Positions 1,191 through 5,846 of a stretch of 64,000 bases of DNA are shown here, piece after piece (position 1 is the first letter of the stretch; each line of letters begins with the position of its first letter). Source of the DNA: Paraburkholderia phenoliruptrix (GTDB lineage: Bacteria; Pseudomonadota; Gammaproteobacteria; Burkholderiales; Burkholderiaceae); NCBI RefSeq assembly GCF_902859825.1, contig NZ_CADIKB010000001.1:372001-436000 (forward strand), read 5' to 3'. Position numbers and translations under genes: made by a program. The notes under the pieces are model-generated. The model was not told where the DNA came from. It searched no databases and saw only the letters and a program-made list of their open reading frames with translations.

Positions 1191-1327
1191 GCCGCTGTTG
1201 TCACGTTTCCCCTAATTAAAGATTGGGAAGGGCTTGTCGTTATCCAGTGAAATAAGTCAGACCGTCGAACTGACTCGTGCCTGAAGAATGGCACGCGCTG
1301 GACCAAAGCTCATCGGGGGTACTCATC

Positions 1328-2563
1328 GTGAATCAACAACGCTCGCCATGGACGCGCACGGCGGCTCCGGGCGAAGTCATCTACTCGGAAGGCTTCGTGG
1401 CCGACACCGTCATCTACGTGATTGCAGACGGCAAGGTCGAAATCTCCACTCAGTGCGATGAAAAAAAGGTCATTCTCGCCACGCTGGGCAAGGGTGAATT
1501 TTTCGGCGAAGCGGCGCTGCTGCCGCCCGAGCCGCGAGCGCATACCGCCAAGGCACTAAGCTTCTGTCAATTGACGGCCATCGCAGGCGGAATTGTCGAA
1601 GAGGAGCTGGAGCGCGTGTCGCCGCTGCTGCGCCACATCGTGCGCACGATGATACGGCGCGTCAAAAAGAAAGACGACATTCTTGCGACGAATACCCACG
1701 CCGATTTTCTGCCCGGCGTGCTGTCGTACGCGCATGTTCTCTCGTTGATGGCCGGCGCTGAGATGAATGACCGGTTCGATGCGCGCGCACGCCGTCCGCA
1801 AAACGAAGAAGTCTCGATTCCGCTTGCCGAAGTCCTCAAGAAGTGCAATGCCATTGCAGGTCATTCGCGACCGCACGTCATGGCCATGCTCAAGCGCATG
1901 GAAAAGCTCAACCTCGTGTCGATCGAATCCGGGCGCTCCGAGCGGCTCAACAATTCCGCCGGACGCTATTCGGCGAGCGACGGCGCGGCGGGCCGGCAGC
2001 TCGTGACGTTCGATCCGGTGAAGATCACCGAGCGGGCACAGCAGGTGGCGAATCACGACCTCGATGTTTCGATCAGCAGCGAACTCGAACTGATCGAGCT
2101 CGACGATCTGGAGGCGCTTATCGGCGTCGACAGGAAAGTGATTCTGAACAAGCTCTCGCACGCCGAGATCGCCGAGGACATCTTCGCGTTCCGCAAGACG
2201 AAGGTGCTCAATTACGTCGAGGAGAAGGGCCTCAGCTACTTCTCGCGCCGTAATGTGCGCGGCGCGGGCGAGCTGAATTCGCTTGACGACCTCGCCTTTG
2301 TCGACCAGCGAACCCTGTTCGAAGCAGTGAGCGCGTTCGATACCTACGACCTCGCGAAGCTTCTCTCGGCGTCGGCGGGACAGCCGATTGACGAACGCCT
2401 CCAGTCCGTCATGACCGAAGCGCGAAAGAAAGAAGTGTCGTGGGTGATGCGCCGCGAGATCAAGATCGATCCGGTCGAGATCGTCGAGATCGAGCAGCGC
2501 TTCATCGACACGGTTCGAGCACTGAAGTCGCCTGCGGCGCACGCGGCGCCGGCCGAGTCCTGA
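1328..2563 (+). CDS. Cyclic-nucleotide-binding protein with FliG-like C-terminal domain
   Basis: The N-terminus (residues ~11-93) is a Crp-type cyclic-nucleotide-binding beta-roll with an intact phosphate-binding cassette (GEFFGEAALL...EPRAHTAKA: Glu and Arg ligands present). The middle (~160-200) has a helical, weakly HTH-like stretch. The last ~85 residues (~316-400) match the spacing of the FliG C-terminal torque domain: LDDLAFVDQRTLFEA, DTYDLAKLL, then a charged helix and ...EIVEIEQRFIDTVRAL. It is followed by motA- and motB-like genes on the same strand (81 bases, then 44 bases). I infer a cNMP-controlled switch or rotor partner of that stator rather than a plain Crp regulator. GTG at 1328 is preferred because GGGGG lies ~10 bases upstream; GTG at 1277 is an in-frame alternative adding 17 residues. 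Confidence 0.8.
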   Translation: MNQQRSPWTRTAAPGEVIYSEGFVADTVIYVIADGKVEISTQCDEKKVILATLGKGEFFGEAALLPPEPRAHTAKALSFCQLTAIAGGIVEEELERVSPLLRHIVRTMIRRVKKKDDILATNTHADFLPGVLSYAHVLSLMAGAEMNDRFDARARRPQNEEVSIPLAEVLKKCNAIAGHSRPHVMAMLKRMEKLNLVSIESGRSERLNNSAGRYSASDGAAGRQLVTFDPVKITERAQQVANHDLDVSISSELELIELDDLEALIGVDRKVILNKLSHAEIAEDIFAFRKTKVLNYVEEKGLSYFSRRNVRGAGELNSLDDLAFVDQRTLFEAVSAFDTYDLAKLLSASAGQPIDERLQSVMTEARKKEVSWVMRREIKIDPVEIVEIEQRFIDTVRALKSPAAHAAPAES

Positions 2564-2644
2564 TGCCTGTCGCGCCCGGTGTATATGACTGAGCGCGACG
2601 TTTAACTGTAATTCGCAGGCTCGTGCAGCCGCTCGCGAGGACGT

Positions 2645-3409
2645 ATGGATCTTTTGACGGTATTTGGCGTAGTGTTCGGCGTGGCGGCGATCGTCGCGGG
2701 CTTCTCACTCGAAGGCGGCAACTTCACGTCGCTATTTCAACTGGAGGCATTTGTCATTGTCCTTGGCGGTACGTTAGGGGCAGTGATGATCCAGAACACC
2801 TGGGCGCGTTTTTTCGACGGCGTGAAACTGCTGCGCTTCGCGTTTGTGAAGGCGCGGCAAGTGGATCGCGAGAGCCTGTCGGTGCTGCTCGAATGGGGCG
2901 ATCAGGCGAAACTGAACGGTCTGCTCGTGTTCGAGTCGATCGAGGCCAACGGCATCAGCCCGTTTGCAAAGCGGGGCCTCGAGCTGCTTGCAAACGGCGT
3001 ATCTACGGCAGTACTGGAAGATGCGTTGCAGCGGGAAGTCGACGCGTATGAGCGCAATTACCTGGCGGCGGCGCGCATCTGGCAACAGGCGGGCGGTTAC
3101 GCGCCGACTTTCGGCATTCTGGGTGCGGTGCTGGGTCTCATTCAGGTGACGGGACACATGCTCGAGCCGTCGCAATTGGGGCAGGGCATTGCGGTCGCTT
3201 TCGTCGCAACGCTATATGGCCTCGCGTTGGCGAACCTCGTGTTTCTTCCGCTATTCGGCAAGATTCGCGCGCAGGTGGACAGCGAATTGCGTTTCAGGCG
3301 TTTGTACCTGGACGGTTTGCTCGCCATCTCTCGCAAGGAATCGCCGCACACCATCGAAACGCGTTTGGCGGGCGACGTGCGCGAACGTTCCGCCGAATTG
3401 CTCGGCTAG
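2645..3409 (+). CDS. MotA/PomA-family stator protein
   Basis: 254 residues, the length of PomA and shorter than E. coli MotA. Two N-terminal membrane helices (~1-20, ~33-50), a cytoplasmic loop with charged residues (~60-145), then two C-terminal helices (~155-178, ~188-208). The two conserved prolines of the MotA core appear at GGYAPTFGILGAVLG and NLVFLPLFGKI. MotA-family proteins form the pentamer around a MotB dimer and convert ion flow into rotation. The gene is not beside a flagellar operon here but between a cNMP-FliG-like gene and a motB homologue. It may be a second flagellar stator or belong to a separate motor. Start ATG 2645 has upstream GAGGACGT. Confidence 0.88.
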   Translation: MDLLTVFGVVFGVAAIVAGFSLEGGNFTSLFQLEAFVIVLGGTLGAVMIQNTWARFFDGVKLLRFAFVKARQVDRESLSVLLEWGDQAKLNGLLVFESIEANGISPFAKRGLELLANGVSTAVLEDALQREVDAYERNYLAAARIWQQAGGYAPTFGILGAVLGLIQVTGHMLEPSQLGQGIAVAFVATLYGLALANLVFLPLFGKIRAQVDSELRFRRLYLDGLLAISRKESPHTIETRLAGDVRERSAELLG

Positions 3410-3453
3410 CCGCATCGACGAAAGTCGGGCATGACTGATAGCGGACTCCGTGT

Positions 3454-4155
3454 ATGAGCACAACTACTGGTAGCAAGCGTCTTTCAACGGACAAGACCGG
3501 TCACCACGGCCACGATGGCGCTCACGACGGCGGCGAGCAGTCGGACCGCTGGCTGATTTCGTACGCCGATCTGATTACGACGCTAATGGTGCTGTTTCTG
3601 GCGCTGTATGTCTTGCAGCTCGCGAAGAACAGCGAGCTACAGATAAAGACGCTGCAGCATCATCCGGTGAAAGAGGCTGTCGAGGTACAGCCGCCTGCAA
3701 CCACGGCCAATGCAAACGAAGCCGCAAAAAAACATCTTCTGTCATTGCTCGCGCCCTTGCAGGACAATCGCCAGATTACGATTTCCCACACGCCGCAAGG
3801 GGTGGAAATAGCGATCAACGCGAAAGTGCTGTTCAATTCCGGCGATGCGCGTCTTTTGCCGGAATCATTCGCGGTGCTGGGCCAAATCGCCACCGTACTG
3901 CGCGACCGCGCGAAAAATAACATTCTCGTGGAAGGCCATACCGACAGTCTGCCGATAGCGACCGCCAAGTACGAATCCAATTGGGAGCTCTCTTCCGCGC
4001 GCGCGGGGGCCGTGGTGCGCTTTTTCGCCGACAGGGGCATCGAAGCGCATCGCATGGCGGCAATCGGCCGGGCCGACAATTTCCCGCTGATCATCGGCAA
4101 CGATGCGGCGGCGAATGCCGCCAATCGCCGCGTGACGATACTTGTCGAATACTGA
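3454..4155 (+). CDS. MotB/OmpA-family stator protein (short form)
   Basis: 233 residues: a His/Asp-rich cytoplasmic N-terminus (~17-30), one membrane helix with the ion-carrying aspartate at D39 (SYADLITTLMVLFLALYVL), a short linker, and an OmpA-like peptidoglycan-binding domain (~110-232, with VEGHTDSLP and NRRVTILVEY). Flagellar MotB/PomB are ~300 residues, so the periplasmic linker and plug region are short. D39 shows it should conduct ions. It is the last gene of the cassette, 44 bases after motA, and converges on the oxidoreductase gene 17 bases downstream. Confidence 0.88.
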   Translation: MSTTTGSKRLSTDKTGHHGHDGAHDGGEQSDRWLISYADLITTLMVLFLALYVLQLAKNSELQIKTLQHHPVKEAVEVQPPATTANANEAAKKHLLSLLAPLQDNRQITISHTPQGVEIAINAKVLFNSGDARLLPESFAVLGQIATVLRDRAKNNILVEGHTDSLPIATAKYESNWELSSARAGAVVRFFADRGIEAHRMAAIGRADNFPLIIGNDAAANAANRRVTILVEY

Positions 4156-4172: not shown

Positions 4173-5846
4173 TCAGGCGTCGAGCGCAAGGTACTGGTGT
4201 AGCGACTGAATCGCGGCCGCGCCTTCTCCCACGGCGGCCGCCACTCGCTTCACCGAGCCGCTACGCACGTCGCCGACTGCGAAGACGCCCGGCCGGCTCG
4301 TTTCGAGAAAGTGCGCCGGGCGCTCGGAGGTCCACTTGTGTGCGACATCCGGGCCGGTCAGCACGAAGCCGTTCCTGTCCAGTTCGACACAGTCACCAAG
4401 CCAGCCGGTGTTAGGCTGCGCGCCGAGAAACAGAAACACATGCCGGATCGGCTTTTCTTCAATTCGCCCTTGCTGATTCCATTGAATCGACTCGAGATGC
4501 GCTTCGCCATTTAGCGCGACGATCTGCGTTCGCACATGAACGGAAATATTCGGCGCCGCCTCGATGCGTCGGATCAAATAGTTCGACATGCTCGCGGCGA
4601 GCCCCTCGCCACGAATCACGATGTGCACATGGCGCGCAAATCCGGACAGAAATACCGCCGCCTGTCCCGCCGAATTGCCGCCGCCCACAATGACGAGTTC
4701 TTCGTTGCCGCAAAACGCGGCTTCCATATACGTGGCGCTGTAATAGACGCCGCGGCCCTGGAAATGTTCGAGACGCGCGAGATCCGGCTTGCGATAACGC
4801 GCCCCCGTCGCGATCACGACCGCGCGACCATAAACATGCTCGTCGTGGCTCAGGCGGATGTGAAACGGCTGGCCTTTATCGCATTCGATACCGAGCGCCT
4901 CGATCGGCACGCCGACTTCCGCGCCGAATTTCCGGCATTGCGAAAGGCCGCGTCCCGCGAGCGCCTGACCCGAAATGCCCGTGGGAAATCCAAAGTAGTT
5001 TTCGATTTTAGAACTCGTGCCGGCCTGGCCGCCGGGCGCCTTCGTGTCGAGCACCGCGACCCGCAATCCCTCGGATGCCGCGTACACCGCCGCTGCGAGC
5101 CCCGCCGGGCCCGCGCCGACCACCACCACGTCGAACCGTTCGCCGTTCAACCGGTCGGGACTCAGACCGATTGCGTCCGCAACGGCACGATTAGTCGGGC
5201 GCTTGAGCACGACGCCTTGCAATGTGACGAGTACCGGCAGATCTTCTTCGGTGGCGCCGTAGCGTGCGAGAAGTAGTTTCGCCTCCTCATGGTCGGCGAT
5301 ATCGAAGTACGCCGACGGTTGTGCATTACGGCTCAAGAAATGCCGCAATACCAGAGTCGGAAACGAAGCAGAGCTGCCGATCACGACCACGCCGCCGTTC
5401 TGGTCCTGAATATAGGCGACCCGGCGCAGAATGTACGCGCGCATGATCGTCTCGCTCAGCTCCGCTTCGGCGATCACGAGCGCGCGCAGCGATTCCTCGT
5501 CGATCACAATGACTTCGCAATCGCTCGTTGCGCGCGCGGACGCCACCGCGCCGCGCCCTGCAAGCGTGCCGACTTCTCCGGTGAAACTGCCTGCGCCGTG
5601 AGCGCCGAGAAAATGCAGGTTCTCGCCGCTGCCGCGCGTCGCCTCGATGGTGCCTGAAACGATGGCGTACATCGGAACGTGTCGATCGCCTTCGGTGAAC
5701 AGGACGTCGCCGGCGCTGAGCTTACGGCGCTCGCCATATCGCTCGAGCACCGCAAACTGCGCATCGTTCAGCTTTGGAAAGATCTGGTGGTGACGGCTGC
5801 CGCCTGCCAGCAGATCTTCACGCTTGCCAGAAGTTTTATCGCTCAT
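4173..5846 (-). CDS. Thioredoxin-reductase-like flavoprotein with N-terminal cNMP-binding domain
   Basis: 557 residues with three parts: a Crp-like cyclic-nucleotide domain (~22-140), a glutaredoxin-like fold (~150-228, VVVIGSSAS...), and a TrxR-like FAD/NAD(P)H module (~236-557). FAD motifs are VVGAGPAGL (242-250) and VFAVGDVRSG (521-530); the pyridine nucleotide motif is VIVGGGNSAG (385-394). The redox-active CxxC expected in TrxR at GVxYCATC is missing: residues 370-373 are SATY. It therefore cannot reduce thioredoxin by the usual route. The phosphate-binding cassette is also degenerate (GRGAVASARA). It converges on the MotAB cassette. Function: inferred redox enzyme or sensor gated by a nucleotide or by ligand loss. 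Confidence 0.85.
   Translation of the reverse strand: MSDKTSGKREDLLAGGSRHHQIFPKLNDAQFAVLERYGERRKLSAGDVLFTEGDRHVPMYAIVSGTIEATRGSGENLHFLGAHGAGSFTGEVGTLAGRGAVASARATSDCEVIVIDEESLRALVIAEAELSETIMRAYILRRVAYIQDQNGGVVVIGSSASFPTLVLRHFLSRNAQPSAYFDIADHEEAKLLLARYGATEEDLPVLVTLQGVVLKRPTNRAVADAIGLSPDRLNGERFDVVVVGAGPAGLAAAVYAASEGLRVAVLDTKAPGGQAGTSSKIENYFGFPTGISGQALAGRGLSQCRKFGAEVGVPIEALGIECDKGQPFHIRLSHDEHVYGRAVVIATGARYRKPDLARLEHFQGRGVYYSATYMEAAFCGNEELVIVGGGNSAGQAAVFLSGFARHVHIVIRGEGLAASMSNYLIRRIEAAPNISVHVRTQIVALNGEAHLESIQWNQQGRIEEKPIRHVFLFLGAQPNTGWLGDCVELDRNGFVLTGPDVAHKWTSERPAHFLETSRPGVFAVGDVRSGSVKRVAAAVGEGAAAIQSLHQYLALDA

What the first reader, a model, noticed from the sequence alone, without database searches (positions are those of the whole stretch)
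1328..4155. cNMP-binding protein with FliG-like C-terminus next to MotA and short MotB: a possible nucleotide-gated motor system
Seen in sequence: three consecutive same-strand genes. The first joins a Crp-type nucleotide-binding domain (intact phosphate-binding cassette) to a C-terminal region whose spacing and residues match the FliG torque domain (LDDLAFVDQRTLFEA...DLAKLL...EIVEIEQRFIDTVRAL). The next are a PomA-sized MotA homologue with both conserved prolines and a MotB homologue with D39 in the membrane helix but a short linker. Known: MotA/MotB plus FliG generate torque; MotAB-like motors also occur outside flagella (for example Zorya). Inference: this cassette is a stand-alone or accessory stator-rotor unit controlled directly by cAMP, c-di-GMP-like or another nucleotide, not a transcription factor plus a spare stator. 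A chemotaxis receptor and a second cNMP protein lie beside it.
Basis: partly seen in the sequence, partly recalled or inferred. Interest (0 to 1): 0.82.

Follow-up and report, generated by a model that had tools for sequence, protein, structure and literature searches.

The report
Nucleotide-sensing FliG mimic with own stator
Paraburkholderia and relatives carry, in one conserved gene row, an extra flagellar-type stator (MotA and MotB) and a protein that joins a cyclic-nucleotide-binding domain to the torque domain of the rotor protein FliG; it likely lets a nucleotide signal gate that stator, which would be a new way of controlling the flagellar motor.

Summary
Gene 1 (1328-2563) has a CRP-type nucleotide-binding domain, a CRP-like winged-helix region, an HTH-like region and a FliG C-terminal (torque) domain. 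A profile of its C-terminal half, built without FliG, has six FliG chains as its top PDB hits; the model superposes on FliG at 1.8 A. FliG's N and middle domains are missing. The order gene1-motA-motB holds in 89 of 92 loci, including gammaproteobacteria at 26-30% identity, whose MotA belongs to another stator lineage (single clade rejected, p=1.4e-6). The MotA arginine that pairs with FliG Asp289 is present in 42 of 42 other stators and replaced in 90 of 90 cassette MotAs; Asp289 is absent in 99 of 99 cassette rows. A sigma28 (late-flagellar) type promoter element precedes gene 1 in 70 of 85 Burkholderiaceae loci (background 11 of 1233; pattern chosen after inspection). Except G008, whose copy is frameshifted, every cassette genome examined has flagellar FliG. 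I therefore prefer a nucleotide-gated accessory flagellar stator, with gene 1 as a detachable FliG mimic, over a stand-alone machine. Binding, ligand and direction of control are untested. No paper describing it was found in the open library.

The parts
1217..1243 (+). sigma28 (FliA)-type promoter-like element TAAAGATT-N11-GTCGTTAT, 12 of 16 matches to the E. coli consensus, 111 bases upstream of the GTG
   Evidence: the stricter pattern occurs once in the 64-kb window, the relaxed one twice; relaxed pattern in 70 of 85 Burkholderiaceae upstream regions against 11 of 1233 other ORFs
1328..2563 (+). gene 1: cNMP-binding protein with CRP-like winged helix, second HTH-like region and FliG C-terminal torque domain (411 aa, GTG start)
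1349..1678 (+). cyclic-nucleotide-binding domain and C-helix (residues 8-117)
1811..1930 (+). CRP-like winged-helix region (residues 162-201); DNA binding not established
   Evidence: secondary structure; (CRP model PRK11753 matches residues 35-216 of the 428-aa form at 33.4 bits, cut-off 266)
2270..2533 (+). FliG C1-6 torque domain (residues 315-402)
2645..3409 (+). gene 2: MotA (PRK09109 type) stator subunit, with Lys-Leu in place of the conserved Arg-Lys of the FliG contact
3454..4155 (+). gene 3: MotB (nearest model MotD) stator subunit, Asp39, OmpA peptidoglycan-binding domain

Best explanation
The three genes encode an accessory flagellar-type stator (MotA-MotB) and a protein that joins a cyclic-nucleotide-binding domain to a FliG torque domain, and this protein likely docks on the rotor-facing side of its own MotA ring and lets a cyclic nucleotide decide whether that stator works. 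Shown: FliG_C homology by profile and predicted fold, no detectable ring-building FliG domains, the conserved gene order, two separate stator lineages paired with the same protein, replacement of the MotA Arg / FliG Asp289 contact on both sides, a late-flagellar type promoter-like element in most Burkholderiaceae loci, and a real FliG in every cassette genome examined but one with a frameshifted copy. Inferred: direct binding to MotA, binding of cAMP or a similar ligand, FliA-dependent transcription, and the outcome. I take the most likely outcome to be a reversible clutch or brake: one nucleotide state would hold the extra stator away from the flagellar rotor, the other would let it engage. 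This would be the cyclic-nucleotide counterpart of the c-di-GMP protein YcgR.
For: FliG homology: (the profile retrieves true FliG in 8 other genomes). Pairing with a stator: gene order in 89 of 92 loci; among 58 congeners a full-length cassette-type MotA (394 bits or more) occurs in the same 29 genomes as gene 1 and in no other. Two stator lineages: the Burkholderiaceae cassette MotA groups with stators L197/L201 (92/96), the gammaproteobacterial one with PomA and PomA-like stators (100/99); one clade rejected, AU p=1.4e-6. Matched loss: PomA position 88 is Arg in 42 of 42 other stators, against Lys in 87 of 87 Burkholderiaceae cassette rows (followed by Leu, Val or Ile) and Ile/Met/Leu in 3 of 3 gamma cassettes; FliG Asp289 is absent in 99 of 99 cassette rows. 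MotA Arg90-FliG Asp289 and MotA Glu98-FliG Arg281 are the published contact pairs (PMC7564593, abstract and passages; PMC12505986, passages); that PomA 88 and 96 correspond to E. coli 90 and 98 is recalled. In the gamma-type cassettes the second pair is kept on both sides (Glu in 3 of 3 MotA; Arg in 10 of 11 rows, 8 of 9 distinct proteins). Flagellar link: FliG in 72 of 73 family genomes with a gene 1 match; among 70 family genomes without FliG only one has a match; FliG in 4 of 4 gamma genomes; promoter element in 70 of 85, with similar elements before genes that I read as flgM, fliC, flagellar motA, flgK and fliS in the same genome; an MCP-like gene near the cassette in 24 of 35 g277 loci. 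Nucleotide link: cNMP domain and, in one gamma locus, a class III cyclase gene (PF00211, 31.8 bits) directly upstream.
Confidence: 0.55

Rival explanations
1. Membrane-tethered transcription factor: the protein is a two-HTH CRP relative whose FliG-like tail lets the stator hold it or sense motor state, so that stator engagement plus cyclic nucleotide set gene expression.
For: CRP-like winged helix conserved in Burkholderiaceae; NBD-HTH1-HTH2 architecture like Bdellovibrio Bd2879 (9sfa), described as a putative transcription factor (passages of PMC12750041).
Against: In the distant copies the recognition-helix residues are not kept and the orphan L119 lacks part of the second HTH-like region; of the three CRP base-contact residues (recalled) only one is kept in the window protein; no DNA-binding test was possible.
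Confidence: 0.2
2. Stand-alone rotary machine: MotA-MotB and gene 1 form a motor independent of the flagellum, with gene 1 as its rotor or power take-off.
For: MotA and the FliG domain have both departed from the canonical contact, as expected of a private pair; MotB scores with Zorya ZorB models (70.9 bits), though less than with MotD (177.2 bits).
Against: No ring-building FliG parts detected; cassette genomes have flagellar FliG; late-flagellar type promoter element; in the one FliG-less genome with a match, G008, genes 1 and 3 are frameshifted, though neighbouring genes are too; PADLOC finds no ZorA in MotA.
Confidence: 0.13
3. Rotor-side insertion: the torque domain replaces or decorates some FliG torque domains in the flagellar C-ring, giving nucleotide-controlled torque or switching.
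For: Homology to FliG C1-6 over its whole length.
Against: No FliG_N or FliG_M detected and the MFXF hinge motif (recalled) is not kept, so there is no obvious way into the ring; the Arg/Lys at 297 is Asp in 97 of 99 rows (Glu and Asn in the other two) and Asp289 is lost in all.
Confidence: 0.07
4. Chance neighbours: an ordinary CRP/FNR regulator beside a spare stator.
For: Public names of many copies are 'Crp/Fnr family transcriptional regulator'.
Against: Gene order conserved in 89 of 92 loci down to 26-30% identity, two stator lineages, identical presence pattern in 58 congeners, FliG homology and fold.
Confidence: 0.02

Closest known systems
YcgR / FlgZ (c-di-GMP PilZ effectors at the flagellar motor)
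   Same: Soluble second-messenger protein proposed to act on stator MotA; c-di-GMP strengthens YcgR binding to MotA and FliG (abstracts of PMC10140304 and PMC12713396). FlgZ is named from search listings and recall.
   Different: No PilZ domain found; carries a cNMP domain and a FliG torque domain; encoded with its own stator; binding untested.
FliG (flagellar rotor protein)
   Same: Homologous C1-6 torque domain, same fold and length.
   Different: No N or middle domain detected; Asp289 and Arg297 counterparts replaced in all rows examined; fused behind a cNMP/HTH module.
Bd2879 of Bdellovibrio (PDB 9sfa), putative cNMP transcription factor
   Same: N-terminal nucleotide-binding domain followed by two winged-helix regions (passages; profile match over positions 9-227).
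   Different: Ends in a predicted disordered zinc-finger region instead of a FliG domain; no stator neighbours are mentioned in the passages seen.
PRK09109-type secondary stators (MotC-MotD; the name MotC is recalled)
   Same: Gene 2 passes this model's cut-off; gene 3's best model is MotD, below cut-off.
   Different: The FliG-contact Arg-Lys pair is replaced by Lys-Leu.
Zorya ZorA-ZorB
   Same: A stator-like motor with non-flagellar partners (recalled); MotB scores with ZorB models.
   Different: No ZorA match in gene 2 and no other Zorya model among the three genes.

Membership tests
FliG | FliG_C (C1-6) torque domain | tested here: met
   the window protein alone scores 18.4 bits, below the Pfam cut-off
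FliG | FliG_N and FliG_M rotor-building domains | tested here: not met
   no Pfam match; the profile comparison aligns only 105 C-terminal columns
FliG | charged torque residues Arg281, Asp288/289, Arg297 (E. coli numbering) | tested here: not met
   Asp289 in 0 of 99 rows, Arg/Lys at 297 in 0 of 99, Arg281 in 0 of 88 Burkholderiaceae and 10 of 11 gamma-type rows; Asp288 in 4 of 99
MotA-MotB stator | MotA with both channel prolines; MotB with membrane Asp, plug and OmpA domain | tested here: met
MotA-MotB stator | torque-interface Arg (E. coli Arg90) | tested here: not met
   replaced in 90 of 90 cassette MotA rows (Lys in 87, Ile/Met/Leu in 3)
YcgR/FlgZ | PilZ domain | tested here: not met
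   no match
YcgR/FlgZ | second-messenger-dependent binding to MotA | not testable with these tools
   needs protein work
CRP/FNR regulators | cNMP-binding domain | tested here: met
   63.7 bits
CRP/FNR regulators | DNA-binding winged helix | tested here: inconclusive
   helix-helix-strand pattern in the model and CRP model matched far below its cut-off; recognition residues not kept in distant copies
Zorya | ZorA with long tail | tested here: not met
   no PADLOC match in gene 2; 254 aa
AbiE antitoxin (AbiEi) | AbiEi profile match | tested here: inconclusive
   weak PADLOC match, 19.2 bits, E 1.8e-4, residues 295-379 of the 428-aa form; not followed further because FliG tests are much stronger
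FliA (sigma28) regulon | promoter TAAAGTTT-N11-GCCGATAA | tested here: inconclusive
   12 of 16 in the window; positional conservation in 70 of 85; consensus from PMC2859248 (passage); transcription not tested

The most novel reading that the evidence does not exclude
A rotor torque domain has become a soluble, cyclic-nucleotide-gated ligand of a private stator: it occupies the MotA face meant for FliG through a rewired contact, it has been paired with two different stator lineages, and it gives flagellated bacteria a cAMP-type clutch for one stator set.
Probability: 0.35. Interest if true: 0.86.

Novelty: new variant of a known kind. Interest (0 to 1): 0.72.

Why it matters
Second-messenger control of the flagellar motor is known for c-di-GMP through PilZ proteins. 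A cyclic-nucleotide domain fused to the rotor's own torque domain, encoded with a dedicated stator, would be a second, independent solution. It would offer a natural mimic for studying how stators recognise rotors: the same contact residue has been replaced in two stator lineages. It would also explain a family now named 'Crp/Fnr family transcriptional regulator' in many Burkholderiaceae records.

Tried and rejected
Stand-alone motor: disfavoured by co-occurrence with FliG and by the promoter element. G008 first looked like a flagella-free genome that keeps the cassette, but its genes 1 and 3 and several neighbours carry frameshifting gaps, so it is not used as support for independence. Conserved neighbours: of the window's other genes the cNMP-reductase fusion is found beside 6 of 92 loci; the window's ABC permease and GST also appear only beside close relatives, while MCP genes of lower identity occur near many loci. 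A named-genome scan with the distant C-terminal profile gave only 2 loci, both already found. The first structure model (25 close homologues) was poor in the N-terminal half; 40 sequences gave mean pLDDT 71. Promoter patterns: three were tried. One search used a stricter one (43 of 85 Burkholderiaceae regions, 6 of 1233 other ORFs) and a mis-spaced one (17 of 85, 4 of 1233); the relaxed one is the one quoted. 4 of 93 regions (92 loci and the window) dropped out for lack of a start anchor or upstream sequence. Scored against the E. coli consensus with fixed spacing the window site has 12 of 16, reached by 2 of 232 control stretches of the window; many relatives score only 8-10 that way. Paper searches for such a protein or cassette: 154 papers hold 3 of 4 broad terms; 20 titles seen, none on this; none. 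A 2025 survey of MotAB evolution has no occurrence of 'cyclic' or 'Burkholderia' in its main text (PMC12505986, find). Sigma70 and terminator scans gave nothing above chance.
Full report
WHERE IT IS. The window lies in a 7.25-Mb genome whose closest named protein records are Paraburkholderia (P. caledonica, P. strydomiana and others). The three genes are at 1328-2563, 2645-3409 and 3454-4155, all on the + strand, with gaps of 81 and 44 bases. The same genome has its flagellar fliG on another contig (C13), and a second MotA there at C13:129358, which I take to be the flagellar one.

ONE UNIT. The protein occurs in 29 of 58 congeners, in 73 of 299 family genomes from 5 of 25 genera, and outside the family in 4 of the 369 genomes of a draw of the class, at 26-30% identity over the full length. 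I fetched the locus from every matching genome other than the window's: 87 family genomes (one of them with two contig pieces) and the 4 gammaproteobacterial ones, 92 loci. In 89 of 92, gene 1, motA and motB are adjacent and on one strand. The three exceptions are L048 (G290), L119 (G840, a diverged orphan) and L190 (a contig-end fragment). In 58 congeners a full-length cassette-type MotA (394 bits or more) is in exactly the 29 genomes that have gene 1; G051 has only an 87-residue MotA remnant. The window's cNMP-reductase fusion is a neighbour in 6 of 92 loci. In the group g277 a cluster of genes that I read as MCPs is found near the cassette in 24 of 35 loci, at a median 3.2 kb downstream of the middle of gene 1, that is about where motB ends (28 of the 29 cluster loci on the same strand). 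In the plasmid collection 8 records hold the protein: Burkholderia 4, Paraburkholderia 2, Caballeronia 2.

TWO STATOR LINEAGES AND A REWIRED CONTACT. In a 24-row MotA tree (8 Burkholderiaceae and 3 gamma cassette rows, 13 others) the Burkholderiaceae cassette MotA groups with two stators of the gamma genomes (L197/L201, 92/96), the gamma cassette MotA with PomA and PomA-like stators (100/99; its nearest row, L215, is a long branch); holding the cassette rows as one clade is rejected (AU p=1.4e-6). So either the stator was recruited twice or it was exchanged. Published work names MotA Arg90-FliG Asp289 and MotA Glu98-FliG Arg281 as contact pairs, the first more important for positioning, the second for torque (PMC7564593, abstract and passages; also PMC12505986, passages). 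At the Arg90 position (PomA 88; the correspondence is recalled) 42 of 42 other stators have Arg: the 29 nearest non-cassette MotAs for which the class search returned loci and 13 others. Cassettes have Lys followed by Leu/Val/Ile in 87 of 87 Burkholderiaceae rows (86 loci and the window) and Ile/Met/Leu in 3 of 3 gamma rows. Glu98 (PomA 96) is kept in 89 of 90 cassette rows and 41 of 42 others. In the cassette FliG domain, 99 rows were read: 88 from Burkholderiaceae loci and 11 gamma-type rows, of which P0121 and P0123 repeat L045 and L046, so 9 distinct; the organisms of P0122 and P0124-P0127 are not named. Asp289 is absent in 99 of 99 (Val/Ile/Leu, or Thr/Ile), position 288 is Trp in 87 of 88 Burkholderiaceae rows and Asp in 4 of 11 gamma-type rows, Arg/Lys297 is Asp in 97 of 99, and Arg281 is kept in 10 of 11 gamma-type rows but in 0 of 88 Burkholderiaceae rows; of 19 true FliGs, 19 keep Arg281 and 18 Asp289. 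Thus the positioning pair is altered on both sides in both lineages. In the gamma cassettes the torque pair is kept on both sides; in Burkholderiaceae only MotA keeps its half.

FLAGELLAR LINK. All 4 gamma genomes have a flagellar FliG over 140 bits; so do 28 of the 29 cassette-bearing congeners (over 130 bits). In G008 gene 1 carries a 1-base and gene 3 two 2-base gaps relative to the window; neighbouring genes are hit too, so this may be general decay or poor sequence. Upstream of gene 1, TAAAGATT-N11-GTCGTTAT matches the E. coli sigma28 consensus TAAAGTTT-N11-GCCGATAA (PMC2859248, passage) at 12 of 16 positions, a score reached by 2 of 232 control stretches of the window. A relaxed pattern, fixed after seeing the sites, is found in 70 of 85 Burkholderiaceae upstream regions (35 of 35 g277, 10 of 10 g484, 2 of 2 g473, 2 of 2 g274, 21 of 36 Paraburkholderia), 69 of the 70 at -103 to -137, against 11 of 1233 other ORFs; a stricter pattern gave 43 of 85 against 6 of 1233. 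On this genome's flagellar contig 8 sites reach 13 of 16 with spacings of 10-12, and 5 of them lie before translations that I read as FlgM, flagellin, flagellar MotA, FlgK and FliS. The 4 gamma loci lack the pattern.

NUCLEOTIDE LINK. The cNMP domain keeps the FGE motif, and the cassette arginine is at least 90% conserved in 40 sequences. Three of the four gamma copies have the usual RSAT form; L047 has REMN and the window RAHT, each off the usual motif (recalled). In L045 the gene directly upstream, on the same strand, encodes a class III cyclase (PF00211, 31.8 bits), and in L046 a second small cNMP protein lies between gene 1 and motA. These point to a cyclic mononucleotide but prove nothing about binding.

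HOW IT PROBABLY WORKS. A protein with a FliG torque domain but no ring-building parts is unlikely to be a rotor in the usual sense; it looks like a soluble ligand of MotA. Together with its own stator, a late-flagellar type promoter element and the near-invariable presence of a real rotor, the simplest reading is a nucleotide-controlled clutch or brake for an accessory stator, comparable in logic to YcgR with c-di-GMP (abstracts of PMC10140304 and PMC12713396). Docking, ligand, promoter use and direction of control are inferred.

NOVELTY. Searches of the open library showed no paper on such a protein or cassette; most subscription journals and preprints are not covered. I rate it a new variant of a known kind: second-messenger control of stators, with a new sensor, a new docking domain and a dedicated stator.

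Noticed in passing
4173-5846 (-): A cNMP-binding domain fused to a thioredoxin-reductase-like flavoprotein (PF00027 plus PF07992); neighbour of the cassette only in 6 of 92 related loci.
   Followed up: partly
L045:9695-11917 (-): Class III adenylate/guanylate cyclase gene (PF00211) directly upstream of the gene 1 homologue in gammaproteobacterial genome G173, with a long N-terminal region.
   Followed up: partly
L046:7849-8322 (-): A second, 157-aa cNMP-binding protein gene inserted between the gene 1 homologue and motA in G289.
   Followed up: no
L112:1486-3090 (-) and L116:1-2832 (-): Methylococcales MAG G290 has two further non-FliG proteins with FliG_C matches: 534 aa, beside a DnaK-like gene, and at least 944 aa with two FliG_C copies. 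FliG_C may have been reused more widely.
   Followed up: no
L119:6429-7583 (-): Diverged orphan gene 1 homologue (33.5% identity) without motAB in G840, beside a sigma54-type regulator gene; it lacks part of the second HTH-like region and scores no FliG_C in Pfam, though the family profile finds it.
   Followed up: partly
G051:C57:1-261 and G051:C64:29405-29665: Remnant of cassette MotA (87 aa, 98% identical to the window) at a contig start and in a second contig of a congener that lacks gene 1.
   Followed up: no
L251:1411-2885 (+): In G290 a motAB pair on another contig, whose MotA is the nearest tree relative of the gamma cassette MotAs, follows an MCP-like gene; it could be the stator partner of that genome's lone gene 1 homologue.
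   Followed up: no
1277-2560, residues 295-379 of the 428-aa form: Weak PADLOC match to the AbiEi antitoxin model (19.2 bits, E 1.8e-4) over the end of the HTH-like region and the start of the FliG domain.
   Followed up: no
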